A stretch of 64,000 nt of DNA from Limnothrix sp. FACHB-406 (GTDB lineage Bacteria > Cyanobacteriota > Cyanobacteriia > CACIAM-69d), in contig NZ_JACJSP010000004.1 in the NCBI RefSeq assembly GCF_014698235.1, positions 1 to 64,000 of the forward strand. Direction: 5' to 3'. Below are positions 282-29,599 of the stretch, in pieces; position 1 is the first letter of the stretch, and each line of letters begins with the position of its first letter. The notes under the pieces were generated by a model. The model saw only the letters and a list, made by a program, of their open reading frames with translations. It did not search any database and was not told where the DNA came from. Both the position numbers and the translations under genes were made by a program.

Positions 282-2897
282 TTGGAAAGTTTTGACTTAG
301 GGATCAAGCTTTATGGTGTTGAGGGGTTCAATGATGCTGTAGCACTACTCTACCGAGATTACATAAACCTGCTAAAAACTATTAGCAAAAATCTTGAACA
401 TTTCTTACCTAAAGATCTAATGTTGGATAACATTCGCATTGAAAATAGATCAACAACGTACCAAGGCTCGATACTTTTTGATCAATCTGACATCAATTTC
501 GAAGTTGGAAAACAAAAAGAACATCCTGAATCCATGCTTCAAACTCAATGCGTAGTCCGAATGACAGTGATTGTTTCAGTCTACTGCTCAGAGTTGTTCT
601 TTGAAGGTTTGCTTAAGGATCTAGTGGCGCAAACCAGTTTTCGCCGAAAAGAAATTGAGCTTATTGTTATTGACAGCGCATCCCCAGAAAATGAACAAGA
701 GATTATTCGGCGTTTCATCGAGTTACATCCAGATCAGATACGCTACTACCGAAGTCACTCGAGGGAAACTATCTACGCTGCATGGAATAGAGCAATTCAG
801 GGGGCGCGCGGAAAGTACTTGATCAATGCCAATGCTGACGATCGGCTCCGACCAGATGCGATCGAGGTAATGGCCCGCTATCTTGATGAGCATCCTGATG
901 TCGCAATGGTTTATCCCTATCAGTTGATTACGGATATTCCTAACGAAACCTTTGAAACAACACAAGCCAATCGCGTCTTTAACTGGACAACTTTTAATCC
1001 TGAATGGTTAGCCCAGGGCTATAACCTTGGATCTCACCTGATGTGGCGAGCGTCTCTGCACCAAAAGTATGGCTACTTCCGACCAGATTTGAAGTCGGCT
1101 GGTGACTACGAGTTCGTTTTGCGAATTGCCAAAACTGAGAAGATTGTATGTATTCCTGAAGTTTTAGGACTGTACTACAACAATCAGCAGGGCTTGTCCA
1201 TGAATATCGCGGCCGCTCTACCCGAAACACGCCGTGTACAAGCAGAGTATGGCTTCCACTATAACGACGTACCCCTATATCAGACTCAGCTATCTAGTCA
1301 TTGCCGTGTTCTTGTTATTACCAATCTCTATCCACCCCAAGAACTGGGGGGGTATGGTCGATCGCTTGCGGATTTTGCTGCTGGGTTGCAATCCCGTGGT
1401 CACCAAATACATGTTCTAACCAGCGATGCACCTTACCTGGGTCGCACACCAGATCGAGAAGATGGCATTGATCGCCGCTTGCAACTGTGGGGAACCTACG
1501 AAGGTCAAACCCAAGAGTTGCAGGATCCTAACCAAATCAATGCGATCGTGGCCCATAACGATCGCATCCTGCGCGAGGTTTTGGCACAACTTCAACCCAA
1601 TCTTTGCCTGGTTGGTAATATCTCATTCCTCGGCCCGGCGATTTTTGGGCCTTTGCTAGAACAACAAATTCCGACAATTCATCACCTGGGGTTTGCCCAA
1701 GTTCCTTACCCACCAACCCTTGCTCCCCAGCACCCGCTCTATCACTTGGCCACCGCTAGCGAGGCCGTGGCTCAGGCGGTGCGAGATTCAGGGTTAACGC
1801 AACTGGCAACGTCAACGACTTATCCCGGCGCTCTGGTACGGCAATTTAGCCGGCCCACGCTGCCCCAGCGGGATAAACTCCGGATTTTGTACGCTGGTTT
1901 AGTGATTCAAAGCAAGGGGCCCCACACCCTGCTGGAGGCCCTGACCGTGCTGCAACAGCAGCAGGTGGACTTTGAATGCACGATCGCAGGTAATGCAATT
2001 CATGCGGATTATTTGGCGGCCCTGCGACAGTACCTGCAACAAACAGGGTTAGTCCATCGGGTGCGCCTGGTTGGCCATTTAGATCGAGCGCAACTGGCTG
2101 ACTGTTTTGCTCAGCACAATGTCTTTGTGTTCCCTTCGATTCAGCCGGAAGCTTTCGGGATTGTACAGGTTGAAGCAATGGCGGCCGGGCTAACGGTCTT
2201 GAGCACAGGGGTGGGCGGGGCTTCAGAGGTGATTGAATCCGGAGTGAGTGGTCTGTTATTCCCAGCCGGTGATGCGCTCGCCCTGGCTCAGGCTCTGATC
2301 AGTTTGCCGCAGGATGCAGAACGTTGGGCGCGCCTGGCCGCCACAGGACAAGCAGCAGCCTTTGCCAAATTTGACATTGAGCGATCAATTGACCAACTCG
2401 AACTAAAATTCGAGGAGCTATTGCGCCGAAAAGCCGAACTCAGCAGCCCTATGGTCCTTTCCATTCCCACCTCCCCTGCCACCGATCCCTACACCCAGTG
2501 GCTGTGCGATCGAATCACAAACGTTGTGCGGGTGTATGGACTTGACCCCAGTGATCAAAATACGCTCTCCCTGCTACGTAACTATCGCCAGATGATCGCT
2601 GAGTTTTGGTGTAATAGTCCTGCCGAGAGATTAGCCGATCTCTACGCTGGTCCTCCCGGCCAATTCCACCGGGAACTCTTAAGCAGCGGATTAGTTCATC
2701 ACCCCTTGACACAACTAGAGGTAATTCACCGCCGAACTTTGACAACTGCTTTGCAGAGGTCCCCCCTTCCCAGTCCTGAAGGTCTCAAAGCGTTTTTGGC
2801 AGTGATGCTCTATTTTACGCCGGGGCAAATGCGGGTAGCAGATGCGGCGAGTAAGCTTCCAGCTTGGTTGTTGCCTATTTATCAGCAGTATTTTTAG
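282..2897 (+). CDS. Multidomain glycosyltransferase (GT2 + GT4) with C-terminal repeat module, 5' truncated
   Basis: Probably transfers sugars during capsule, O-antigen or protein glycan assembly at the cytoplasmic face. From the TTG at 282, residues about 1-60 are the end of a broken upstream domain. Residues about 93-330 are a GT-A (GT2) domain with IVSVYC, IDSAS and the metal-binding NADD segment near 185. Residues about 340-690 are a GT-B (GT4) domain with LYPPQELGGYGR at its start and PEAFGIVQVEAMAAG (the E-x7-E region) near 622. Residues about 733-871 are the helical module repeated in the neighbouring genes, ending LPAWLLPIYQQYF. The start is uncertain: TTG 282 has no clear ribosome site, and the next in-frame ATG is at 420. 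Base composition changes from AT-rich (first kilobase) to GC-rich (GT4 and module), which suggests a mosaic gene. Substrates cannot be predicted. Confidence 0.8.
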   Translation: MESFDLGIKLYGVEGFNDAVALLYRDYINLLKTISKNLEHFLPKDLMLDNIRIENRSTTYQGSILFDQSDINFEVGKQKEHPESMLQTQCVVRMTVIVSVYCSELFFEGLLKDLVAQTSFRRKEIELIVIDSASPENEQEIIRRFIELHPDQIRYYRSHSRETIYAAWNRAIQGARGKYLINANADDRLRPDAIEVMARYLDEHPDVAMVYPYQLITDIPNETFETTQANRVFNWTTFNPEWLAQGYNLGSHLMWRASLHQKYGYFRPDLKSAGDYEFVLRIAKTEKIVCIPEVLGLYYNNQQGLSMNIAAALPETRRVQAEYGFHYNDVPLYQTQLSSHCRVLVITNLYPPQELGGYGRSLADFAAGLQSRGHQIHVLTSDAPYLGRTPDREDGIDRRLQLWGTYEGQTQELQDPNQINAIVAHNDRILREVLAQLQPNLCLVGNISFLGPAIFGPLLEQQIPTIHHLGFAQVPYPPTLAPQHPLYHLATASEAVAQAVRDSGLTQLATSTTYPGALVRQFSRPTLPQRDKLRILYAGLVIQSKGPHTLLEALTVLQQQQVDFECTIAGNAIHADYLAALRQYLQQTGLVHRVRLVGHLDRAQLADCFAQHNVFVFPSIQPEAFGIVQVEAMAAGLTVLSTGVGGASEVIESGVSGLLFPAGDALALAQALISLPQDAERWARLAATGQAAAFAKFDIERSIDQLELKFEELLRRKAELSSPMVLSIPTSPATDPYTQWLCDRITNVVRVYGLDPSDQNTLSLLRNYRQMIAEFWCNSPAERLADLYAGPPGQFHRELLSSGLVHHPLTQLEVIHRRTLTTALQRSPLPSPEGLKAFLAVMLYFTPGQMRVADAASKLPAWLLPIYQQYF
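2292..2545 (+). repeat. Direct repeat copy 1 (254 bp)
   Basis: This stretch at the end of the GT4 domain and start of the module recurs at 3837-4090 at a constant offset of 1545 bases with only about six or seven base differences by eye. The two copies flank the AT-rich gene at 2930-3697. Confidence 0.9.
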
Positions 2898-2929
2898 TAC
2901 AATCTCCTTGGAACAAGAGTCTAAGAAAG

Positions 2930-3697
2930 ATGGATATCGTTGTAGCAACAAGCATTGCGCCTAAAAACATTGAACTTCAAAAGCTTGCAATCAAGTCATG
3001 GCTAGACTTGGGCATCTCAGTTGTTTCATTAAACACAAATCAGGAAATTGAATATCTAACTCCTTTTTTTCGAGAGATTGAGTTTCTCAAAGTCGAACAT
3101 ACTGGTAAAAATATGTATGGAAAAGACTATGTATACCTAAACGATATAATGAATTACCTGAAGAAATACGGAACAGATATATGTGGATTGATTAATTCAG
3201 ATATATTTCTGAGAACTACTCCGCATTTTCTGAATTTGATATTACTTGAGTGCAAAAACTCCCTGGTTTTCGCCTCCAGATGGGATCTAAATCAATTAAC
3301 TGATGAACATGGCGAGCTTTTCGAGCTGGGCTTTGATGTCTTTTTCTTTGATCGCAACCTATTAAGTTATTTCCAGACCTCTAGATTTTGCCTAGGTGTC
3401 CCATGGTGGGACTATTGGATTCCTGCAACTGCAGTACAAAATCATCTTACGATTAAGTACGCGGTTACTCCTTTTGCCTATCATCTGAAGCATGACACAA
3501 ATTATGATCAACACATATGGATTCGAGCTGGTATGAAGTTCTTGAAAGATTACGACTCGAATGCATATGAATCATTGTCAAGACAAATCATGAACACTCA
3601 ACTCGCAAAAATGAATCCAATTATAAGCAACACTTTGAAGTGTATCTCTTTTAGGCTTTTATCGGAAGTTGAAAATTCAGCTATTAAAGTGTTTTGA
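2930..3697 (+). CDS. Small GT-A-like glycosyltransferase candidate, AT-rich
   Basis: Encodes 255 residues from the ATG at 2930. The start is preceded by a purine-rich AAGAAAG and begins MDIVVATS, a typical first strand of a nucleotide-binding fold. Around residue 90 the segment INSDIFL resembles the DXD-type site of GT-A enzymes. No signal peptide or membrane segment is seen. The gene is markedly AT-rich against its neighbours and sits between the two copies of a 254-bp repeat, which suggests separate acquisition. It starts 32 nt after the preceding CDS. The glycosyltransferase call rests on the SDIF motif, the N-terminal strand and the neighbours, so it could be another GT-A-fold protein. 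Confidence 0.6.
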   Translation: MDIVVATSIAPKNIELQKLAIKSWLDLGISVVSLNTNQEIEYLTPFFREIEFLKVEHTGKNMYGKDYVYLNDIMNYLKKYGTDICGLINSDIFLRTTPHFLNLILLECKNSLVFASRWDLNQLTDEHGELFELGFDVFFFDRNLLSYFQTSRFCLGVPWWDYWIPATAVQNHLTIKYAVTPFAYHLKHDTNYDQHIWIRAGMKFLKDYDSNAYESLSRQIMNTQLAKMNPIISNTLKCISFRLLSEVENSAIKVF

Positions 3698-3806
3698 AAC
3701 AAAATAGTGCTCGTGAAGTCAATGATAACAGTCTGACAGTAGTTATTCATCGCTCCAGTTTGTACCTGCTTCCCCTCAATGCCAATTCGAGAGTTTCAAA
3801 TAAATA

Positions 3807-5468
3807 ATGCCATGGCAAAATGGGGTGAGTTGCTTTGCTCTGATCAGTTTGCCGCAGGATGCAGAACGTTGGGCGCGCCTGGCTGCCATAGGACAAGCAG
3901 CAGCCTTTGCCAAATTTGATATTGAGCGATCGATTGACCAACTCGAACTAAAATTCGAGGAGCTATTGCGCCGAAAAGCCGAACTCAGCAGCCCTATGGC
4001 CCTTTCCATTCCCACCTCCCCTGCCACCGATCCCTACACCCAGTGGCTGTGCGATCGCATCACAAACGTTGTGCGGGTGTATGGACTTGATCCCAATGAC
4101 CAAAGCACGATTAACCTCCTGCGGGAGCTACGCCGCCAGACTGCCGAGCTTTGGAAGGCTGCGCCAGCGGAGCAACTCCCAGATCTTTACCAAGGCTCTG
4201 TGGGCCAAGCCTATCGCTCCTTGCTGCACAGCGGCTTCCAATCCCAGCCCCTCACGGGTGAAGAAGCCAACTACCTTCAAGCTCTCACTAATCAAGTGAG
4301 TCAGCATACCGTTCAACATCCGGTTGGCTTGCAGGCGTTCTTGGGGGTGATGCTGTATCTCCCCGCTGGCAAGATGAAGGTTGATCAGGCCCCAATGAAG
4401 CTTCCGGCTTGGCTGCTGTCGGATTATCAATCGGTTTTTGAGCCGCCTGGAACTGTAGAGCCGACCAGTGATCCACAGCCGATCGCCCCGCCAACCTCAG
4501 CAACCGCGCCCCTTCATCAGGACATGACCTTCCTGAATCGGTTGTTAGGCTGTGCCAATCTTTACTACATCGACCCCGAAGAAACCTCGATCGCAGAAGA
4601 GCTGCGGCTGATCCGTCAGCAGGTGGGGCAAATTTGGGCCCAAACGCCCCTTGAGCAACTGGAGTCTCTCTACAAGAGTGAATTTGGTCGCCGCTACTTA
4701 GCTCTGCTGGACAGTGGCTATCAAAACTATCCCTTACGCCCGGAAGAGGAGTCCGTTGTTCAGGAGTTGACGGGGCTGATCAGTCAGGGAATCGATCGCT
4801 ACCCGGGGCTGAATGCGCTGTTGGCCATCATGATGTATCTGCCACCGGGCAAAATGCAGGTACGGGACGCAGCCAATCGCTTACCGGCTTGGTTGCTGCC
4901 GGACTATCAGCGAATTTTTGAAGCGGATCAAGCGACAACTGCTCCCTTAGTGCCGTCCCCGCAACCAACCGTCCCCACGGCCGCCCCGGCTGCGGCTGCT
5001 CCACCCTCCGTGAGCCAGCCCCCCAATTTGGCGGAGGATATGGTGTTTCTGAACCGCTTCCTGGGCTGCTCCAATCTCTACGAAATCGACCCGGAAGATG
5101 GGGAAACGGTGGCGGAACTGCGCCAATTGCGACAACGGGTGGCTGAGTTTTGGCTGACGGTTCCTCCATCTCAACTGGAGGCTGTGTTCAACAGTGAACT
5201 GGGTCGCCGTTATGGCATGTACCTGAAATCAGGATTCCAACGGGAGCCGTTGACGGATGGGGAGCGGGAACTGCTGGTGAAGCTGGCGGAAACAGCAGCG
5301 CGTGGTTTCGAGCAGCCCGGTGGTTTGAATGCGTTCTTGGGCGCAATGATGTACTACGCGCCGGGACAAATGCAGGTGAAGGATGCGGCAACCCGTTTGC
5401 CCGGTTGGCTGTTCCCGCTGTACGCGGCGGTGTTTGAGTCCGAGGCTCAAAAAAAAATGACTTCCTAG
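3807..5468 (+). CDS. Protein with a GT4 C-terminal stub and three tandem copies of an unrecognised ~130-residue module
   Basis: Encodes 553 residues. After about ten unmatched residues (MPWQNGVSCF) the protein repeats the last GT4 segment of the first glycosyltransferase (LISLPQDAERW onward). Three modules follow at residues about 73-211, 236-371 and 409-545, separated by Pro/Ala/Thr-rich linkers. Each module contains a helix with R-x2-AE-x-W or similar, a Leu-Y-x-G-x2-Y-x2-LL-x-SG segment, PLT/R-x-EE, and an ending close to PGKMQV-x-DA-x2-LPAWLLPDYQ-x-FE. I do not recognise a named domain. It looks like a gene that lost its catalytic 5' part through the duplication at 3837-4090. The surviving modules are intact and may act as a scaffold. 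A stop codon lies in frame just before the start. Confidence 0.75.
   Translation: MPWQNGVSCFALISLPQDAERWARLAAIGQAAAFAKFDIERSIDQLELKFEELLRRKAELSSPMALSIPTSPATDPYTQWLCDRITNVVRVYGLDPNDQSTINLLRELRRQTAELWKAAPAEQLPDLYQGSVGQAYRSLLHSGFQSQPLTGEEANYLQALTNQVSQHTVQHPVGLQAFLGVMLYLPAGKMKVDQAPMKLPAWLLSDYQSVFEPPGTVEPTSDPQPIAPPTSATAPLHQDMTFLNRLLGCANLYYIDPEETSIAEELRLIRQQVGQIWAQTPLEQLESLYKSEFGRRYLALLDSGYQNYPLRPEEESVVQELTGLISQGIDRYPGLNALLAIMMYLPPGKMQVRDAANRLPAWLLPDYQRIFEADQATTAPLVPSPQPTVPTAAPAAAAPPSVSQPPNLAEDMVFLNRFLGCSNLYEIDPEDGETVAELRQLRQRVAEFWLTVPPSQLEAVFNSELGRRYGMYLKSGFQREPLTDGERELLVKLAETAARGFEQPGGLNAFLGAMMYYAPGQMQVKDAATRLPGWLFPLYAAVFESEAQKKMTS
3837..4090 (+). repeat. Direct repeat copy 2 (254 bp)
   Basis: Second copy of the sequence at 2292-2545, forming the start of the three-module CDS. 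Differences include GCC/GCT, ACA/ATA, GAC/GAT, TCA/TCG, GTC/GCC and GAA/GCA codons. After base 4090 the two genes stay homologous only at protein level, so the near-identity is a recent copy or conversion within older paralogy. Confidence 0.9.
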
Positions 5469-5494
5469 GGAACGCTGAGGCTGGCAGTCCTCAA

Positions 5495-6745
5495 TTGCCT
5501 GAGTTAACGGAGGTAGCTGGCTCCGAATCGGGGGCCAACGATCGGGCAGAGTCTGCTACACCGTCAGCCCCAGACCCCAATGCTGGGCTAATGAATGCTG
5601 AGGGTCGGTTTTGCCACTGGCGCGATCGCCCCTGGGACTCAGTGCGCCCCATCCAAACCTCCTTCCTGACGGGTAGCGACGCGGTGGCGATCGAGATGGC
5701 CGCTCGCAGCTACAGCTATCGGGGCATTCAGACCATCAAAAATCCTTTTGATTGGGCGCTCTATTCCCTGCTGCTCTGGGAACTGAAGCCGCGCACCATT
5801 TTTGAAATTGGCTCCTTTGCCGGGGGAAGCGCTCTCTGGTTGGGAGATCACCTGAATAATTTTGGAATTGATGGGCATATCTACTCGATCGACATCAACC
5901 CGGTGACCGATGTGAGCCATCCAAGGGTGACCTTTTTGGCAGGGGATGGTCGAGACTTGGGGCAAACCCTTTCGCCGGACTGGTTGGCCAGCCTACCGCG
6001 CCCTTGGTTAGTGATTGAGGATGCGGATCACTCCTACGGAACAACCATTGCGGTGTTGGAGTTTTTCCACGGCTGGCTGGAGCAGGGTGATTATGTGATT
6101 GTGGAAGATAGCCTCAGTGCCGGGAAGCCACTGCAAGCCTTGGAAGAATTCTTGATGGTTTGCGGGGATGAATATGAGATTGACACCTATTTCTGTGACT
6201 TCTATGAACGGAATATGACCTGGTGTCTGAACGGTTTCCTCCGCAAACGGACGACCGCTGGGGCGATCGCCCCTTCATTCCCGTCGCGCGAACTGGGAGA
6301 GCCGGGATTGCCAGAATGGGACGAGTTTTGGTTGAACTGGATAGATAGCTGCTTGGATCTTTACGAGCGATCGCCTGAACATTGGGGGGCCTTGGCAGAA
6401 CTCAGTAATGCTCGCTCTCGCTATGCCCATTACTGGAAGGAAGCGCCGATCGAAGACTTGCCGGTGATCTGGCAAAGCACCAGCGGACAAATTTATCAGC
6501 GGCTAGTGGCGAGTCGGTTTGGACAGCGGCCCATCCTGCCAACCGATCTCGATTTTCTGCTGACTTTTGTGGAATATTGCAGTGGTTTGCCGGAACCCGA
6601 ATCGGCCATCCGGACGGCATTGGTGGCCATCGCCTATCCAATTCCAGCGGTCGATCGCTCAGTGTGGGAGCGAATCTATCCTCAGTTACCTGATTGGTTG
6701 GCTCCAGCGGTAACCGCCGCTTTGGAAGCATGGCAGCGGCGTTAG
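5495..6745 (+). CDS. CmcI-like class I methyltransferase/hydroxylase-family protein with a diverged C-terminal module
   Basis: Likely an S-adenosylmethionine-dependent methyltransferase of the cephalosporin-hydroxylase (CmcI/RhmM) type, acting on a sugar or glycan in this locus. Counting from the TTG at 5495, the fold begins near residue 75 (YRGIQTIKNPFD). Motif I IFEIGSFAGGSALWLG is near 102, an acidic SIDIN strand near 130, and IEDADHSY plus VIVEDSLSAG, with metal- and cofactor-binding residues of this family, follow at about 175 and 205. Residues about 275-410 form a diverged copy of the module of the neighbouring genes (ARSRYAHYWKEAP, ending LPDWLAP). The TTG start is 26 nt after the previous stop. 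An in-frame ATG at 5591 (MNAEGRF) is an equally plausible start and removes only a low-complexity stretch. Confidence 0.8.
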   Translation: MPELTEVAGSESGANDRAESATPSAPDPNAGLMNAEGRFCHWRDRPWDSVRPIQTSFLTGSDAVAIEMAARSYSYRGIQTIKNPFDWALYSLLLWELKPRTIFEIGSFAGGSALWLGDHLNNFGIDGHIYSIDINPVTDVSHPRVTFLAGDGRDLGQTLSPDWLASLPRPWLVIEDADHSYGTTIAVLEFFHGWLEQGDYVIVEDSLSAGKPLQALEEFLMVCGDEYEIDTYFCDFYERNMTWCLNGFLRKRTTAGAIAPSFPSRELGEPGLPEWDEFWLNWIDSCLDLYERSPEHWGALAELSNARSRYAHYWKEAPIEDLPVIWQSTSGQIYQRLVASRFGQRPILPTDLDFLLTFVEYCSGLPEPESAIRTALVAIAYPIPAVDRSVWERIYPQLPDWLAPAVTAALEAWQRR

Positions 6746-6950
6746 CGACTGGATGAATAGCCGTTGATTCGCCCGCATGGTGGCGAACCCTGAAGATCTT
6801 TGGGTGCAGGTGGAAGCGGTGATTCGACTGCTAGATCAATTGCTAGATCAATTCGGGGCCCTGCTCCGTTGATCTGGGTTGGAACCGCTCCAGAAAACCG
6901 TTATTCTCGACTCGATCGCCCCCCAAACCCTCAACCAGCCCGCAACTCCG

Positions 6951-9900
6951 ATGGCCGACAATTCCCAGCCGCGTACCTACCACCAATGGTCGATCGCGAA
7001 CCGGCCCACCGCCGCCGACCTCGATCGCATGGCCACCACGGCGCGGCAAGGATTCCGCTACCGGCCGACCATCAGCATTGTGATGCCCACCTACAACACA
7101 CCGGAGCAACTGCTGATTGAGGCGATCGAGTCGGTATTGGCCCAGGTCTATCCCGATTGGGAATTGTGTATTGCGGACGATTGCTCCACCGCGCCCCACA
7201 TGCGGCCGCTGCTTGAGCAATATCAACAGCGCGATCCGCGAATTAAAGTCGCCTTCCGCCCTGAAAACGGTCATATTTCCCGTGCTTCCAACTCCGCCCT
7301 GGAGATTGCAACGGGTGAATATGTTGCCCTGCTGGATCATGACGATTTGCTTACGCCGGATGCCCTGTTTGAAGTGGCCTCGCTGCTGCAACTGCATCCC
7401 GATGCGGACATGATCTACACCGACGAAGACAAAATCGATGAAAAGGGGATTTTGTCGGAACCGACCTGTAAGCCGGCCTGGTGCCCCGACTCGTTTTTGA
7501 CGCGGATGTATATCTGCCACTTGACCGTTTACCGGCGATCGATTTTGACCCAGGTGAGTGGGTTTCGGGCAGGGTTTGAGGGCAGCCAAGACTATGACTT
7601 AGCCCTGCGATTTACGGAGCAGACCGATCGGGTCTATCACATTCCTCGGGTGCTCTATCACTGGCGGATTCACTCCGGATCGGCGGCGGGTTCCACCGAA
7701 GCCAAGCCCTATGCCTATGAGGCGGCGAAAAAGGCCTTGCGGGAGGCGATCGAGCGGCGCGGGGAACCGGGGCAAGTGGAAACCATCGCCAAACGACCGG
7801 GCCACTACCGAATGCGCTACCAGATCGCTGAGCGCAAATTGGTTTCCCTGCTGATTTTTGTGGGCGATCGTCCCGCCGACCTCGATCGCTGCCTGAACGG
7901 AATTGTTCGCCACACGGACTATGGCCCCTATGAGGTGCTGGCCGTGTTGGGAACCACCCAACCGGAGCCGGGCCTTTTGCAGGTGTTGCAACGGTGGCAA
8001 ACCCAGTTGGGAACCGATCGACTGCGGGTCGTGCCCTGTGAGGATTTCAATTGGGCTGCTGCTGCCAATCACGCGGCGCAACAGGCCCGGGGCGATTATC
8101 TGGTGTTTTGGGAAGATGGCATGGAGCCGATGGGAACCGCTTGGTTAACCCGTCTGGTGGAACAGGTTCAGCGATCGCGCATTGGCGTGGCTGGCCCCAT
8201 GGTGCTGGATCCAGAGCAGCAAATTGAACAGGCGGGCCTAACCTTAGGCCTCAATCCCGAGGGGCTTTGTCTCTATCAGGGTTTGGATACCAAGGTCTCT
8301 AACTACGCCAACCTAGCCCACATAGACCTGGCCAATAATGTTTCGGCCTTGCGCTGGACGGGGATGTGTTGCCGCCGATCGACCTGGGCGCGGGTGGGTG
8401 GTGTGGATCCGCGTTTGGGCATTTTTGCGGCGGATTTGGATTTCTGTTTGAAGTTGCGATCGGCCGGCTATCGCCATATCTTTGTGCCCGAATCGCGCCT
8501 GCGCCAGCACCACCCCCTGGCTTGGCAACATCAGCTCACGGATCCGGAAACCCAGCGCCAGGCGGCATTGCGGGTTTTGGAAACCAAGTGGGATCTCCAG
8601 TTGCGCTATGACCTTTGCTATAGTCCCGCCCTGGCCGGGTTGCTCGATCGCCCGGGATTTCGCCGGGACTACGAACGGTTGCAAGCCCAAACCATCCATA
8701 GCCAACAGCCCCTCGTCACGATCGCCATTCCCACCTATAACGGCCGGCGCTATGTTGATGAAGCCCTGGCCAGTGCGCTCCAGCAGAGCTATCCCCACTT
8801 GGAAGTGTTTGTCAGTGACGATGGTTCCACCGATGGGACGATCGAGCAACTGCAAACCGCAGCGGCTCAGGATCCCCAACGAATTCAACTGGTGGCGGGG
8901 CCGCAGGCGGGCATGGTGGCCAACTGGAACCACTGTGCGGAATTTGCGCGGGGCAAATATTTGAAGTTTTTGCACCAGGATGATTTGCTCGATCGCGACT
9001 GTCTGAAGGCCATGGTGGCCTTGGCGGAAAGCGATCCGGAAATTGCCCTGGTGTTTGCCCCCCGGCGCTTGTTGCTGGATCCGTCGGCGGCCCAGGATCC
9101 CGCTTCCCAACGGTTGGCGGCCGGCAGTGAGAACTTGCACCATGGTTGGTCGCACTTGCAGGCGGTGCAACCGGGGGTAGACCTACTGCGAGATCCGCGC
9201 TTGCTGCTGGCTCCCACGGATCCGACCAAGCTGGACAAGCTGAAACAGCTGTTTCAGGATCCGGTGGATCCTGTGGAAAAGGTGGGGCAAATCAACAAAA
9301 TTGGCGAACCGAGCGCGGTGTTGGTGCGTACCGATGCTCTGTTGGCCGTGGGTGGTTTTGATCCGGCCCTGAAGCAATTGGTGGATTTGGATCTTTGGTT
9401 GCGGCTGTTGGCCAAGTACAAGGTGGGCTTTATTGCGCGCCCCCTGTCCAGTCGGCGGATCCATGCCCAGCAGGTGACCCAGCTCAATTCGGCGGAGAAA
9501 GAGTTGGAAACCGATGCTCGCCGGTTTTATCACAAGCTGGTGGCGGCTCCCTGGTTTGATCAGCTCCATTCCCGATCGCAACAAATTGCTCAGGCAATGA
9601 CCAAGCATATGGATCGGCTGCTGAAATCCGAGCGGCCGCGCCTGGCTCCAGTTCCGGCGGGAACGGAGCGGCCCCTGTGGTCGGTGATGTTGCCGGTTTA
9701 TAACCCCGATCCGCAGCAATTGGCCTTGGCGCTGCAAAGTGTGTTGGATCAGGCCCTGCCGGCCGATCGAATGCAGATCGAGGTGTTGGATGATGCGTCC
9801 GATCGGGTGGATGTGCGGGCGATCGTGCAGCGGGTGGCGGGCGATCGGGTGCTGTATACCCGTCAGCCCAAAAATCGAGGACTGCTAGGCAATTGGCAGG

Positions 9901-12554
9901 ATTGTTTGAGTCGATCGTCTGGCCAGTGGGTGTTGTTGTTGCACCAGGATGATGGGTTGCTGCCGGGATTTGTGGAGCGGATGACCCGGGCGATCGAGCA
10001 GGCGGGCGACCGGGTGGGCATGGTGCTCTGTCGGCATCACCACATCGATCACCAGGGGCGAATTGTTTGGACTTCTGAACTGGAACGGGAAACGGCCGGG
10101 CCCGTGAGTGATTGGGTCGATCGGATTGCCCAGCGCCAACGGGTGCAATTTTCCGCCATGGTGGTGCGCCGCGCGGCCTATGAGGAATTGGGAGGGTTTG
10201 ACCCGGCGGCGGCTTCGGCGGCCGATTGGGAAATGTGGCAGCGCCTAGCCAGTCGCTGGGGTCTGTGGTTTGAGCCAGAACCCTTGGCGGTGTTTCGGCG
10301 GCATGACGGTTCCACCACCTCCAAACTCACCCGCACTGGGGCCAACATTGCCGACACTCGCCGCGCCATTGACCTGGCCCGCGCCTATCTCCCCACCGAT
10401 CGGCGCGATCGCCTGGCTCGCCGCGCCTTGCAGTACTATGCCCAATACGCGATCGGGGTGGCCCAAGACAGCCTGAAGCGGGCTGACTGGGAAACGGCGA
10501 TCGCGCAACTGCGGGAAGCGCTCCGTTGTGAGGATTCGATCGAAACCCGATCGGCCGTCATTGACTGTCTGTTGCAAACGGCTCCCGCGGCCCCGGACTC
10601 ACCTGCTCCGGTGGATCCGGCCCCGATCGCCCCCTTGACCACAACTGCCACAACTGCCACAACCGAGGAGACCCAAGCCCTAGTTCGGGACATTACCCCT
10701 CTGGCTTCCATGGTGGTGCTGTTTGTGCCCTTGGTGAACGAGGTGAAACAGGCCGTGGCCGCCTATCGTCAACATTCCACCGATCCCAAGGTGATTGAAC
10801 GGTTGCGGAATGCCCGTCGCCAATTGGCGGAACAATGGTTGCGAATTCCGTTCGATCGCCTTGATGAGGCCTACCTGGCCCGGTTGGGTCAAGCGAACAA
10901 GGCCCTGGTGGAAACGGACTTGCGCTATGAACCCTGGACCGCTGACGAGCGATCGTTCATTGAACCCCTAATCAGCAGCCTCCAGGGAGGCATCAAAACC
11001 CTGAGCCAGCTTCGCAACTTCATCATCCTGATGATGTATTGCCGGGCCTATCAACTGCCCTTGGAATATGGCGCGATTTACTTGCCCCAATGGTTCCTAG
11101 AGGCCTATGCCCTCTACATGCAGGAAGCCCCCCTCTATTTCCAAGAGGTGGGCGATGCCGATCGCTTTGCCCAGCACATCACCCGTTGGACTAACCAGGT
11201 CTATCGCACCAACGAAACGCGCCCTGAAGATGAGGTTTCCCAAAAACTGGCCCGCTGGCTGGCCTATCGCGGCACTTTCACGCCTTTGTATTTCACCGCC
11301 GACAGCCCAACGGATATCTATCGCAAGCGAGCGTTCCTGATTGCGAAAACCCTGAAGGATCAGGGCGAAGTGGTCGATTATCGGTTTGGGCCCAGGGATC
11401 CCCAGCGGCAAAAGCTGCGGGTGGGGATTTTGAAGGATCACTTCACGCCCCAAACGGAAACCTTCACCACCCTGCCCGCCTTTGAATATTTGGATCGATC
11501 GCGCTTTGAGATCATTCTCTATAGCGTCTTTGCCACCGGTCATCCCCTGGAGCAATATTGCGCCAGCCGCGCCGATCAGTTTGTGCATTTGCAAGGAAGC
11601 TTGGCCCAACAGACGGCCCGGATGCGGGCCGATGACCTGGATTTGCTGCTGATTGGCACGAACGTCACCATGGTGACCAATCCGATCACGGTGTTGGCGG
11701 TGCAGCGCCTGGCCCGAGTGCAGGTGATGTCCACCTCAGCACCGGTCACCACGGGAATGACCCATGTGGATGCCTATATTTCCGGGTCGCTGACGGAGAC
11801 CACCGATGCCCAAACCCGCTACACGGAAAAGCTGTTGGCGCTTGAGGGGCCGGCCCATGCCTTTAACTATGATGTGTTGCCCCAAACGGCGACGATTCAA
11901 CCCTCGCGGGCTTCCTGGGGAGCTACGGATCAAACCACGGTTTATATGTCCGGGGCCAATTTCAACAAAATTGTGCCGGAGTTGCGATCGGTCTGGGTGA
12001 AACTGCTGGCACAGGTGGCGGATTCGGTGCTGGTGCTCTATCCGTTCAATCCCAATTGGGGGCAAAATTATCCCGCGCAACCGTTCATCGATCGGTTCCG
12101 ATCGGACTTGGCCGCCGTGGGTGTGGATCCGCAGCGCCTAGTGATTTTGAATCCTTTGCCCACCATGGCCGACATTCGCGAGTGCCTGAAGCTGGGGGAT
12201 GTTTATTTGGATTCGTTCCCCTTTGCGGGGGTGAATTCCACGATCGATCCGTTGCTGGTGGGAATGCCGCCCGTGGTGGTGGAAGGGGTGGCGTTCCGAT
12301 CGCGGATGGCCTCGGCCCTGTTGCAATCGCTGCGAATTCCGGAGCTGATTGCGGCCGATGAGGCGGACTATCTGCAATTGGCGGTGCGGTTGGCTAAAAA
12401 CCGCGACTGGCGGCAGGCCTTGAGCGATCGCATCCGGCGGGCCATGGCGGCCAACCCGGTTTTCTTTGACAGTCGCCGCTATTCAACACTGATGGGGCTA
12501 GCCTTTGAGCAACTGTTTGCCGCTTGGCAACGGGGCGAGCTAGGGGCCCACTAG
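6951..12554 (+). CDS. Giant glycosyltransferase: four GT-A-type domains, linker module, C-terminal GT41 (OGT/HMW1C-like) domain
   Basis: Encodes about 1,867 residues from the ATG at 6951; an in-frame TTG at 6879 would add 24. Domain order: GT2 at about 40-285 (IVMPTYN, LDHDDLL); a second GT-A-like unit at about 295-570 (VSLLIFVGD, FWEDGMEP); a third at about 585-880 (IAIPTYN, FLHQDDLLD); a fourth at about 905-1150 (VMLPVYNP, LLHQDDGLLPG). The recurrent module follows at about 1250-1390, then a GT41 domain from about 1490 to the end. In GT41 the stretch FNKIVPELRSVW places Lys1673 where OGT has its UDP-contacting lysine, and DVYLDSFPFAG...STIDPLLVGMPPVV is the typical nucleotide-sugar region. 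GT41 enzymes transfer GlcNAc or glucose to protein. I infer protein or surface-glycan glycosylation with chain extension encoded in one polypeptide. No membrane segment is visible. Confidence 0.85.
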   Translation: MADNSQPRTYHQWSIANRPTAADLDRMATTARQGFRYRPTISIVMPTYNTPEQLLIEAIESVLAQVYPDWELCIADDCSTAPHMRPLLEQYQQRDPRIKVAFRPENGHISRASNSALEIATGEYVALLDHDDLLTPDALFEVASLLQLHPDADMIYTDEDKIDEKGILSEPTCKPAWCPDSFLTRMYICHLTVYRRSILTQVSGFRAGFEGSQDYDLALRFTEQTDRVYHIPRVLYHWRIHSGSAAGSTEAKPYAYEAAKKALREAIERRGEPGQVETIAKRPGHYRMRYQIAERKLVSLLIFVGDRPADLDRCLNGIVRHTDYGPYEVLAVLGTTQPEPGLLQVLQRWQTQLGTDRLRVVPCEDFNWAAAANHAAQQARGDYLVFWEDGMEPMGTAWLTRLVEQVQRSRIGVAGPMVLDPEQQIEQAGLTLGLNPEGLCLYQGLDTKVSNYANLAHIDLANNVSALRWTGMCCRRSTWARVGGVDPRLGIFAADLDFCLKLRSAGYRHIFVPESRLRQHHPLAWQHQLTDPETQRQAALRVLETKWDLQLRYDLCYSPALAGLLDRPGFRRDYERLQAQTIHSQQPLVTIAIPTYNGRRYVDEALASALQQSYPHLEVFVSDDGSTDGTIEQLQTAAAQDPQRIQLVAGPQAGMVANWNHCAEFARGKYLKFLHQDDLLDRDCLKAMVALAESDPEIALVFAPRRLLLDPSAAQDPASQRLAAGSENLHHGWSHLQAVQPGVDLLRDPRLLLAPTDPTKLDKLKQLFQDPVDPVEKVGQINKIGEPSAVLVRTDALLAVGGFDPALKQLVDLDLWLRLLAKYKVGFIARPLSSRRIHAQQVTQLNSAEKELETDARRFYHKLVAAPWFDQLHSRSQQIAQAMTKHMDRLLKSERPRLAPVPAGTERPLWSVMLPVYNPDPQQLALALQSVLDQALPADRMQIEVLDDASDRVDVRAIVQRVAGDRVLYTRQPKNRGLLGNWQDCLSRSSGQWVLLLHQDDGLLPGFVERMTRAIEQAGDRVGMVLCRHHHIDHQGRIVWTSELERETAGPVSDWVDRIAQRQRVQFSAMVVRRAAYEELGGFDPAAASAADWEMWQRLASRWGLWFEPEPLAVFRRHDGSTTSKLTRTGANIADTRRAIDLARAYLPTDRRDRLARRALQYYAQYAIGVAQDSLKRADWETAIAQLREALRCEDSIETRSAVIDCLLQTAPAAPDSPAPVDPAPIAPLTTTATTATTEETQALVRDITPLASMVVLFVPLVNEVKQAVAAYRQHSTDPKVIERLRNARRQLAEQWLRIPFDRLDEAYLARLGQANKALVETDLRYEPWTADERSFIEPLISSLQGGIKTLSQLRNFIILMMYCRAYQLPLEYGAIYLPQWFLEAYALYMQEAPLYFQEVGDADRFAQHITRWTNQVYRTNETRPEDEVSQKLARWLAYRGTFTPLYFTADSPTDIYRKRAFLIAKTLKDQGEVVDYRFGPRDPQRQKLRVGILKDHFTPQTETFTTLPAFEYLDRSRFEIILYSVFATGHPLEQYCASRADQFVHLQGSLAQQTARMRADDLDLLLIGTNVTMVTNPITVLAVQRLARVQVMSTSAPVTTGMTHVDAYISGSLTETTDAQTRYTEKLLALEGPAHAFNYDVLPQTATIQPSRASWGATDQTTVYMSGANFNKIVPELRSVWVKLLAQVADSVLVLYPFNPNWGQNYPAQPFIDRFRSDLAAVGVDPQRLVILNPLPTMADIRECLKLGDVYLDSFPFAGVNSTIDPLLVGMPPVVVEGVAFRSRMASALLQSLRIPELIAADEADYLQLAVRLAKNRDWRQALSDRIRRAMAANPVFFDSRRYSTLMGLAFEQLFAAWQRGELGAH

Positions 12555-27564: not shown

Positions 27565-28000
27565 GAATCAAAAACCTCTGCTTTGTGCGCTGCAATACCG
27601 CTCAGATTGGGAATCTAGGACGCAAACGACTGGGGGCGATCGTCCTGGGCTACTTTGGCCGGGCCGATCGATCGCCCCCGTCCCTTCCGGATTTCCTGAA
27701 CCACCCCACCCCAACGCCGTGCGGGGTCGCCCCACGCAAGCCTATGTTAACAATCGGGTTAATTGGGTTTGCCCCCTCCCGATCGCCCCAGGGATCCAGG
27801 CCAATTCCTGACCTTGCCGGCCCCATCTCTCCGCTTCGCACCCGCCCCAAACCCGCCATTTTCGGCACATCCCCCATTTGACAACCCCAGAACAAATCGA
27901 CCATCATCGATTCGCGCGAGCCACACCCACCATCACCTCATCTTCAGCCTTCTCACGCATCGGTTCGCCCGCAGGACTGTAGCCCACCTTGGAGCGCCCC
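27565..28000. other. Divergent intergenic region, no gene seen
   Basis: Lies between the phosphomutase start (minus) and the RTX gene start (plus), so it should hold both promoters. A GC-rich inverted repeat (GGGGGCGATCG near 27627, CGATCGCCCCC near 27664) includes HIP1-type cores. The sequence is Pro-codon-rich by chance in several frames and none looks coding. Confidence 0.45.
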
Positions 28001-29599
28001 ATGGCCATCATTAACGGTAACAACCTTCCCAACCTCCTCACCGGAACCAACGACAACGACCAAATTTTTGGCAACGAAGGGAGCGACACCCTCATTGGCT
28101 TAGCCGGTAACGATGCCCTCCAAGGGGGCCGCGACAACGACATCCTCAATGGCAACGATGGCAACGACTTCCTGCAAGGGGGCTTTGGCAGCGACCAACT
28201 CTTTGGCGGCAAGGGAAATGACACCCTTTACGGCAACGAAGATAACGACTTGCTGGATGGGAACGATGGCAACGATCTGCTCTTTGGTGGCCAAGATCCC
28301 GACATCCTGCGAGGCAGCCAAGGCAACGACACCCTATGGGGCGACGTGGGAGCCGATACCCTCTACGGTGGCCAGGGCGATGACCTGCTGCAAGGCAACG
28401 AGGGCGAAGACATCCTATTTGGAGATTTGGGCAACGATGTCATCTTTGGTGGCCAGGGCAATGACCTGATTTTTGGCAGCCAAGGGAACGATCGGATTGA
28501 TGGCAGTCGAGGGGATGACGTAGTTTTTGGTGGCCGAGAAGCCGACACTATCAATGGCGGCGATGGTAACGATGATCTGAATGGCGACAGCGGGGCTGAT
28601 CTGATCCTGGGCGGCCGCGACCTTGACATCATCAACGGCGGCGAAGGCAGCGACACCCTCAACGGCAACGGCGATGCGGATACGATCAATGGCGGCGACA
28701 ACGAAGATGTGATCTTCGGCGGAACCGGGGACGATCGCCTGTCCGGGGATAACGGTAACGACACCCTGTATGGCAACCAGGGCAGCAACACCCTGATTGG
28801 GGGCAATGGCGGCGACACCTTCATCGTGTCAGGCCAAGCGGGTGGCGTTGACATCATTGCTGACTATGACTTCACCCAAGACCTGATTGGGTTCGAGGGC
28901 AACATTGCCTCGCGGGTGGTGGTGGTTCCGGGAACGGGGCTGAACGCGGCCGATACGTTCCTGACGTTGGTGGATACCAACAACACGGAGCGGCTGATTG
29001 CGATCGTGAAAAACAGCCAGCGCCTCAGTTTCCTCACCCCCGTGGGCACAGACACCACCACGGGCGGCGTGAGCGGCAGCACGGGCGGCACGGGCAGCAC
29101 CGGTTCCACCCAGCCCTCCACCGGCAATGACAATATTCAAGGCACGTTTGGGGATGACACGATCGATGCTTTGGATGGCAACGATACGGTCACCGGTTTG
29201 GGTGGTGCAGATTTGCTGAAGGGCAGTGGCGGCAACGATTTGATTGATGGCGGCGAGGGCAATGACTCCATGGAAGGGGGATTGGGGTCTGATACGTTGC
29301 TGGCCACGGGGGGAAGCGACTTCTTTATTTACAACACGCCCGCTGAAGGGGGTGATGTGCTGACGGACTTTGACCCCACGTTGGACAAATTGGTGATTCG
29401 GAGCACCGGATTTGGGGGAATTACGACCCTGCGGGTGTTCTCGGTGGATCCGGAGCGGGGCGGGTTTGCCTTTGTCAGTAGCGGCACGGGGGTCGCGTTG
29501 CAGTTCAACAACGGATCCGGCGTGCAAACGATCGCCACCTTCCCCAATGCGCCTGCCAACTTGTCCAGTAGTTTCAACAGTTGGGCCATCCTGGGCTAG
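28001..29599 (+). CDS. RTX-type calcium-binding repeat protein
   Basis: Encodes 532 residues from the ATG at 28001. Most of residues 10-275 are tandem glycine- and aspartate-rich nonapeptides of the GGxGxDxLx type, a beta-roll that folds on binding Ca2+ outside the cell. An acidic IIADYDFTQDLIGFEG segment follows. A Gly/Ser/Thr linker (TGGVSGSTGGTGSTG) at about 355-375 separates a second, shorter repeat block at about 380-440, ending in LTDFDPTLDKLVIRS. There is no N-terminal signal peptide. RTX proteins usually leave by a type I exporter reading a C-terminal signal, and no exporter is seen nearby. No catalytic domain is present, so a surface or matrix role is inferred. Confidence 0.9.
   Translation: MAIINGNNLPNLLTGTNDNDQIFGNEGSDTLIGLAGNDALQGGRDNDILNGNDGNDFLQGGFGSDQLFGGKGNDTLYGNEDNDLLDGNDGNDLLFGGQDPDILRGSQGNDTLWGDVGADTLYGGQGDDLLQGNEGEDILFGDLGNDVIFGGQGNDLIFGSQGNDRIDGSRGDDVVFGGREADTINGGDGNDDLNGDSGADLILGGRDLDIINGGEGSDTLNGNGDADTINGGDNEDVIFGGTGDDRLSGDNGNDTLYGNQGSNTLIGGNGGDTFIVSGQAGGVDIIADYDFTQDLIGFEGNIASRVVVVPGTGLNAADTFLTLVDTNNTERLIAIVKNSQRLSFLTPVGTDTTTGGVSGSTGGTGSTGSTQPSTGNDNIQGTFGDDTIDALDGNDTVTGLGGADLLKGSGGNDLIDGGEGNDSMEGGLGSDTLLATGGSDFFIYNTPAEGGDVLTDFDPTLDKLVIRSTGFGGITTLRVFSVDPERGGFAFVSSGTGVALQFNNGSGVQTIATFPNAPANLSSSFNSWAILG

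What the first reader, a model, noticed from the sequence alone, without database searches (positions are those of the whole stretch)
282..12554. Unnamed ~130-residue module shared by four neighbouring glycan genes
Six copies are visible: C-terminus of the GT2-GT4 protein (about 2480-2894), three tandem copies (about 4023-5440), C-terminus of the methyltransferase (about 6330-6730) and the linker before GT41 (about 10700-11115). Shared features are an R-x3-AE-x-W helix, a G-x2-Y/H-x-x-LL-x-SG segment, PL-x3-E, and an ending near PGKMQV-x-DA-x2-LPAWLLP-x-Y. Having the same module on two glycosyltransferase classes, a methyltransferase and a scaffold-like protein suggests a docking or acceptor-recognition domain that holds one pathway together. 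The all-alpha domain that precedes GT41 in HMW1C enzymes is a possible relative, but this is untested.
Basis: partly seen in the sequence, partly recalled or inferred. Interest (0 to 1): 0.75.

Follow-up and report, generated by a model that had tools for sequence, protein, structure and literature searches.

The report
Uncharted helical domain on cyanobacterial glycosyltransferases
A previously unlisted ~145-residue helical protein domain occurs on several sugar-transferring enzymes in cyanobacteria, and gene neighbourhoods in related genomes suggest that it brings those enzymes to a cell-surface protein that is sugar-coated before being exported.

Summary
Six copies lie in four neighbouring genes of a Limnothrix-type genome, and a profile of the three tandem copies alone finds the other three at E 1e-15 to 1e-46. 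No Pfam or NCBIfam family covers the domain. It folds confidently in silico (pLDDT 92, pTM 0.87; all helices) and has no match in the PDB.

Across cyanobacteria (56 of 390 genomes) I counted 187 copies in 94 proteins. Of these, 54 sit 93 ± 5 residues before a GT41 catalytic domain and mark a distinct GT41 subfamily; most others are C-terminal tails or free two-copy proteins. A relation to the HMW1C all-alpha domain was tested and not found, but the position is the same.

The "scaffold-like" three-copy ORF is a decapitated GT4 gene: the 69d relative has an intact 900-aa GT4 plus three copies. Many genomes have a single copy, so copy-to-copy docking cannot be the general function. In picocyanobacteria and Planktothrix relatives the genes sit beside a type I secretion ABC exporter (21 of 24 genomes; 0.31 expected), often with an RTX protein. 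That linkage is absent in the window's own genome.

Best reading: an acceptor-recognition domain for glycosylation of exported surface proteins. The function is inferred.

The parts
282..2897 (+). GT2-GT4 protein with one copy of the domain at its C-terminus; the frame is open from base 81, with a fragment resembling the end of another glycosyltransferase
   Evidence: Pfam GT2 95-228, GT4 356-689; frame 81-2894
2463..2894 (+). domain copy 1 (C-terminus of GT2-GT4)
   Evidence: E 1.5e-46 with a profile of the tandem copies only
2292..2559 (+). 268-base direct repeat, first copy (end of GT4 and start of domain)
   Evidence: 96.6% identical to 3837-4104
2560..3836 (+). insertion relative to Limnothrix 69d, carrying a variant end of domain copy 1 and an unassigned ORF (2864-3697)
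   Evidence: colinearity with L038 is broken here; no Pfam hit for the ORF
3807..5468 (+). three-copy ORF: C-terminal part of a GT4+three-copy gene, 93% identical to the end of the intact 900-aa protein of Limnothrix 69d
3837..4104 (+). 268-base direct repeat, second copy
4008..4448 (+). domain copy 2
4500..4931 (+). domain copy 3 (the copy modelled: pLDDT 92.2, pTM 0.87, eight helices)
5013..5447 (+). domain copy 4
5495..6745 (+). CmcI-type O-methyltransferase with one domain copy at its C-terminus
   Evidence: PF04989 71-216
6296..6736 (+). domain copy 5 (C-terminus of methyltransferase)
   Evidence: E 4.5e-15
6879..12554 (+). four GT2 stretches, domain copy 6, 90-residue connector, GT41 catalytic domain
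   Evidence: Pfam
10698..11132 (+). domain copy 6, of the pre-GT41 class
   Evidence: E 1.1e-18; class by tree
11133..11402 (+). 90-residue connector between domain and GT41 fold, of constant length in 54 proteins
   Evidence: 93.1 +/- 5.0 residues
11403..12542 (+). GT41 (GT-B) catalytic domain
   Evidence: PF13844; PDB profile hits to SPINDLY and OGT at E 1e-29 to 1e-36 and to HMW1C/NGT at E 1e-10 to 1e-11

Best explanation
The module is an undescribed ~145-residue all-alpha domain that defines a cyanobacterial subfamily of GT41 protein glycosyltransferases and has been copied onto other enzymes of the same pathway. Shown by computation: its boundaries and predicted fold; its fixed place 93 residues before the GT41 fold, where OGT and SPINDLY carry TPRs and HMW1C/NGT its all-alpha domain, both of which bind the acceptor protein; a second class of C-terminal or free-standing copies; and, in two to three lineages, neighbourhoods with a type I secretion exporter and RTX proteins. 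Inferred: the domain binds the unfolded acceptor polypeptide, probably a type I-secreted, RTX-like surface protein, in the cytoplasm. The pre-GT41 copy presents the acceptor to the first transferase; C-terminal copies on GT4, GT2 and methyltransferase proteins tether the extending and modifying enzymes to the same acceptor; several copies in tandem raise avidity; the free two-copy proteins of picocyanobacteria act as adaptors beside TPR-type GT41 enzymes.
For: Domain on GT41, GT2, GT4, unassigned GT-like and methyltransferase proteins or alone, never on an unrelated enzyme among the proteins scanned. 54 copies lie 93.1 +/- 5.0 residues before the GT41 fold; GT41 domains with the domain score 367 bits or more against the subfamily profile, those without it 165 or less, apart from one ORF that seems split by a frameshift. 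TPRs and the AAD at that position bind acceptors (PMC9715652; PMC10507012). The cNMP-binding ABC exporter, 1-4 per genome, lies within 11.5 kb of a module gene in 21 of 24 genomes, 0.31 expected; neighbours include HlyD, a PPIC-type isomerase and RTX proteins. SwmA and oscillin are RTX proteins reported to be glycosylated (PMC3034196). Single-copy genomes exclude module-module docking as the general function.
Against: In the window's genome (Limnothrix) the exporter lies on another contig (G000:C2) away from the module genes, and Limnothrix 69d and G026 also lack the linkage. Upstream of the 69d cluster are amino-sugar genes, which fit LPS or polysaccharide as well. Most of the long multi-copy genes (L116-L121, L158-L161) have no exporter or RTX gene in reach. 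The linked genomes come from only two or three families, so they are not 21 independent cases.
Confidence: 0.48

Rival explanations
1. Docking domain: copies bind each other or a common partner and assemble glycosyltransferases and methyltransferase into one complex.
For: Same domain on four adjacent genes and three enzyme types; in other lineages the tail copies are fused to the same polypeptide as the GT41, which links the parts functionally.
Against: Genomes with one copy only, and picocyanobacteria whose copies all lie in a single protein, leave no module partner; the three-copy 'scaffold' of the window is a truncated GT4.
Confidence: 0.2
2. Glycan-binding or chain-positioning domain for an exo- or lipopolysaccharide pathway, binding the growing sugar chain rather than a protein.
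For: Partners are GT2/GT4 enzymes and CmcI-type methyltransferases; amino-sugar genes upstream in Limnothrix 69d.
Against: The fixed partner is a GT41 fold, whose characterised members glycosylate proteins; in two lineages the neighbours are a type I exporter and RTX proteins, not polysaccharide exporters.
Confidence: 0.15
3. Structural or oligomerisation domain of this GT41 subfamily with no recognition role, copied onto neighbours as a dimerisation unit.
For: Constant spacing to the catalytic domain; TPRs of SPINDLY also form dimers.
Against: Does not explain free two-copy proteins in genomes without a module-bearing GT41 or the linkage to the export locus.
Confidence: 0.12
4. Strongly diverged form of the HMW1C/NGT all-alpha domain.
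For: Same position and length: about 245 residues before the GT-B fold in both; all-helical.
Against: hhalign probability 0.15-0.3% against four cyanobacterial HMW1C-type proteins; no PDB fold match for the isolated domain; none of the listed best 50 PDB matches of domain plus GT41 is HMW1C. PF18254 is absent from the window's genome and PF18071 gives no match there or in the copy-bearing relatives listed; among copy-bearing genomes the one match (G305, below cut-off) is in a separate HMW1C-type protein.
Confidence: 0.05

Closest known systems
GT41 O-GlcNAc transferase / SPINDLY
   Same: GT-B catalytic domain of GT41 with a helical N-terminal region directly before it; profile hits at E 1e-29 to 1e-36
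   Different: no TPRs in the domain; ~145-residue single domain plus a 90-residue connector; copies also occur detached from the GT41 fold
HMW1C / N-glycosyltransferase (NGT)
   Same: cytoplasmic GT41 enzyme of ~620 residues with ~245 residues of helices before the GT-B fold; in AaNGT that all-alpha domain binds the acceptor (PMC10507012)
   Different: no sequence relation of the N-terminal regions, no HMW1C_N/HMw1_D2 match in the window's genome, no fold match
Cyanobacterial RTX surface glycoproteins exported by type I secretion (SwmA, oscillin)
   Same: RTX proteins and a type I exporter are neighbours of the domain genes in picocyanobacteria and Planktothrix-type genomes
   Different: these are the presumed acceptors, not relatives of the domain; identity of any neighbour with SwmA or oscillin was not tested

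Membership tests
GT41 glycosyltransferases (catalytic part of ORF 6879-12554) | GT41 catalytic domain above the Pfam cut-off | tested here: met
   PF13844 95.5 bits, cut-off 25; PDB GT41 hits
GT41 glycosyltransferases (catalytic part of ORF 6879-12554) | catalytic and UDP-binding residues in place, activity on protein | not tested
   residues not mapped onto a solved structure; no assay possible
OGT / SPINDLY | TPR superhelix before the catalytic domain | tested here: not met
   no TPR family in the domain region of the window protein
HMW1C / NGT | HMW1C_N (PF18071) and HMw1_D2 (PF18254) | tested here: not met
   no match in the window's genome; hhalign probability 0.15-0.3%
HMW1C / NGT | all-alpha domain fold | tested here: not met
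   Foldseek of the module model: best PDB E 1.7, no HMW1C entry
Any described Pfam/NCBIfam domain (the module itself) | match above the curated cut-off | tested here: not met
   no family at E<0.05 in the module of window proteins; EAD2, DUF6027 and Propep_M14 appear below their cut-offs in relatives

The most novel reading that the evidence does not exclude
A cyanobacteria-wide cytoplasmic protein-glycosylation kit in which one interchangeable helical acceptor-binding domain is fitted to GT41, GT2, GT4 and methyltransferase enzymes, or used alone as a two-copy adaptor, to build a methylated glycan on type I-secreted RTX surface proteins such as those needed for gliding and swimming.
Probability: 0.35. 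Interest if true: 0.8.

Novelty: new variant of a known kind. Interest (0 to 1): 0.6.

Why it matters
Cyanobacterial RTX surface proteins needed for gliding and swimming (oscillin, SwmA) are reported to be glycosylated (PMC3034196), but I found no paper in the library that names the enzymes responsible. This domain marks candidate enzymes, adaptors and acceptors in one gene neighbourhood, so the question can be tested by single gene removals in tractable picocyanobacteria. It would also be a third kind of helical domain in front of the GT41 fold, after TPRs and the HMW1C all-alpha domain, with a fold that has no match in the PDB by Foldseek.

Tried and rejected
HMW1C all-alpha domain homology: rejected on sequence and fold; position only. 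Viral or plasmid origin: no relative in viral contigs, plasmids or phages, no viral fold match. Independent scaffold gene: rejected, truncated GT4. Fold search of the domain+GT41 model: uninformative for the domain, because the model is only moderate (pLDDT 71.6) and GT41 entries dominate the list. A 28-row alignment was too divergent for the collection scan, so a 12-row one was used; that scan is therefore biased to the tandem class. PDB sequence hits of the six-copy profile (best E 0.004, a designed propeller protein) were judged chance. Paper searches for this domain in Planktothrix or for HMW1C in cyanobacteria gave nothing relevant.

Full report
Observation. Six copies of one sequence module are present in four consecutive + strand genes. 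BLASTP between the translated genes gives E 1e-8 to 1e-84 between copies. A profile made of the three tandem copies alone finds the other three, and no other window ORF, at E 1.5e-46, 1.1e-18 and 4.5e-15; leave-one-out profiles give 2.5e-40, 1.3e-20 and 7.3e-15; shuffled ORFs give none. Invariant across the six are R, W, G, Y and the P-x-W near the end. A seventh copy lies elsewhere in the same genome, at the N-terminus of a 640-residue GT41-like protein.

Identity of the host. The window begins at the first base of contig C4.

The domain itself. No Pfam or NCBIfam model covers it and a profile finds no credible PDB chain by sequence. AlphaFold2 on copy 4500-4931 with 64 rows gives pLDDT 92.2 and pTM 0.87, eight helices and no strand. 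Foldseek finds no match below E 1.7 in the PDB and none below 2.9 among viral models. No library of predicted cellular proteins was available, so fold novelty is claimed against the PDB only.

What the three-copy ORF is. DNA comparison with Limnothrix 69d shows window 1318-2559 and 3837-6743 colinear with one stretch of that genome, in which a single 900-residue protein holds GT4 followed by three copies. The window has an insertion at 2560-3836 and a 268-base direct repeat at 2292-2559 / 3837-4104 (96.6%). The ORF 3807-5468 is therefore the C-terminal part of a split GT4 gene, and the 'scaffold-like' label does not hold. Because this is near a contig end and beside a repeat, misassembly cannot be excluded.

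Distribution. 56 of 390 sampled cyanobacterial genomes have the domain; the collection scan returned cyanobacteria only, with a narrow pattern; viral, plasmid and phage collections gave none. In the loci fetched I counted 187 copies in 94 proteins: 54 directly before a GT41 domain, 69 elsewhere in GT41 proteins (nearly all C-terminal), 64 in proteins without GT41. The interval from domain to GT41 is 93.1 +/- 5.0 residues (n = 54). GT41 domains with the module score 367 bits or more and those without it 165 or less; the single exception is an ORF that seems split from its module by a frameshift. In 68 of 76 proteins the last non-pre copy ends within 25 residues of the C-terminus. A tree of 182 copies separates pre-GT41 copies from tail copies: 11 label changes in all, shuffled mean 93.8, though many inner forks are weak. 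Pfam of the partners: GT2, GT4, GT41, CmcI-type and other methyltransferases, or nothing; the N-terminal half of L041:9929-12559 has no Pfam hit but looks like a GT8-type enzyme to me.

Relation to HMW1C. Four cyanobacterial HMW1C-type proteins served for comparison; one exceeds the PF18071 cut-off and three match it weakly. Their GT-B part aligns with ours at 99.7% probability over positions 243-622 against 249-609, so both have about 245 residues in front. Those N-terminal regions do not align (0.3% and 0.15%).

Neighbourhood. All 17 picocyanobacterial loci with the free two-copy protein have a cNMP-binding ABC exporter or an RTX protein near it, with GT4_3 and GT41 neighbours in the locus scanned in full (L104). 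Nine single-copy loci of Planktothrix-type and related genomes (L138, L140-L146, L148) have the same exporter next to the domain gene; in the two cassettes read in full (L177, L178) there is also a PPIC-type isomerase, a HlyD protein, a methyltransferase-glycosyltransferase and an RTX protein. The exporter occurs 1-4 times per genome, and in 21 of 24 genomes one lies within 11.5 kb of a domain gene, against 0.31 expected for random placement. These are only two to three families, so the independent evidence is smaller than 21 cases. In the window's genome the exporter locus is on contig C2, with the isomerase, HlyD and a methyltransferase-glycosyltransferase 46% identical to that of the G305 cassette, but without a domain gene; Limnothrix 69d and G026 also lack the linkage.

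Mechanism. Known: in SPINDLY the TPRs, and in NGT the all-alpha domain, bind the acceptor chain immediately before the GT-B fold (PMC9715652; PMC10507012). Known: SwmA and oscillin are RTX proteins reported to be glycosylated, and type I secretion is the common export route of RTX proteins (PMC3034196). Inferred: this domain takes the acceptor-binding role in a GT41 subfamily, and its extra copies bring further enzymes to the same acceptor. Module-module docking as a general function is excluded by genomes with one copy only, and by picocyanobacteria whose copies lie in a single protein. Docking to a common non-module partner is not excluded and is not sharply different from acceptor binding. 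I put the acceptor model at about one half.

Verdict. Observation confirmed and extended; docking and HMW1C kinship not supported; acceptor recognition favoured but unproven. New variant of a known kind: a GT41 glycosylation system with an undescribed accessory domain.

Noticed in passing
window 27989-29599 (+): RTX calcium-binding protein (12 HemolysinCabind stretches), about 15 kb from the module genes; a possible but untested acceptor.
   Followed up: partly
window 2292-2559 and 3837-4104: 268-base direct repeat (96.6%) flanking an insertion that splits the GT4+three-copy gene, close to a contig end; could be a real rearrangement or a misassembly.
   Followed up: partly
window 2864-3697 (+): ORF of 277 aa inside the insertion with no Pfam or NCBIfam match; its start overlaps the end of the GT2-GT4 gene.
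   Followed up: no
window 6746-6878, compared with L038:9445-11250: Limnothrix 69d has a TPR-GT61 gene between the methyltransferase and the GT41 gene; it is missing in the window.
   Followed up: partly
L174 (G000 contig C2, 220500-240000): Exporter locus of the window's genome: PPIC-type isomerase, C39/cNMP-binding ABC exporter, HlyD and a methyltransferase-glycosyltransferase, but no module gene.
   Followed up: yes
L124, L125, L126, L132: HMW1C-type N-glycosyltransferase relatives in cyanobacteria; one is above the PF18071 cut-off, three match weakly.
   Followed up: partly
L043:1277-3998: Module ORF and GT41 ORF overlap in different frames, as if one gene were split by a frameshift.
   Followed up: no
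L133:3380-9042: Amino-sugar genes (DegT-type aminotransferases, epimerase, acetyltransferase-like) upstream of the Limnothrix 69d cluster, hinting at an unusual sugar in the glycan.
   Followed up: no
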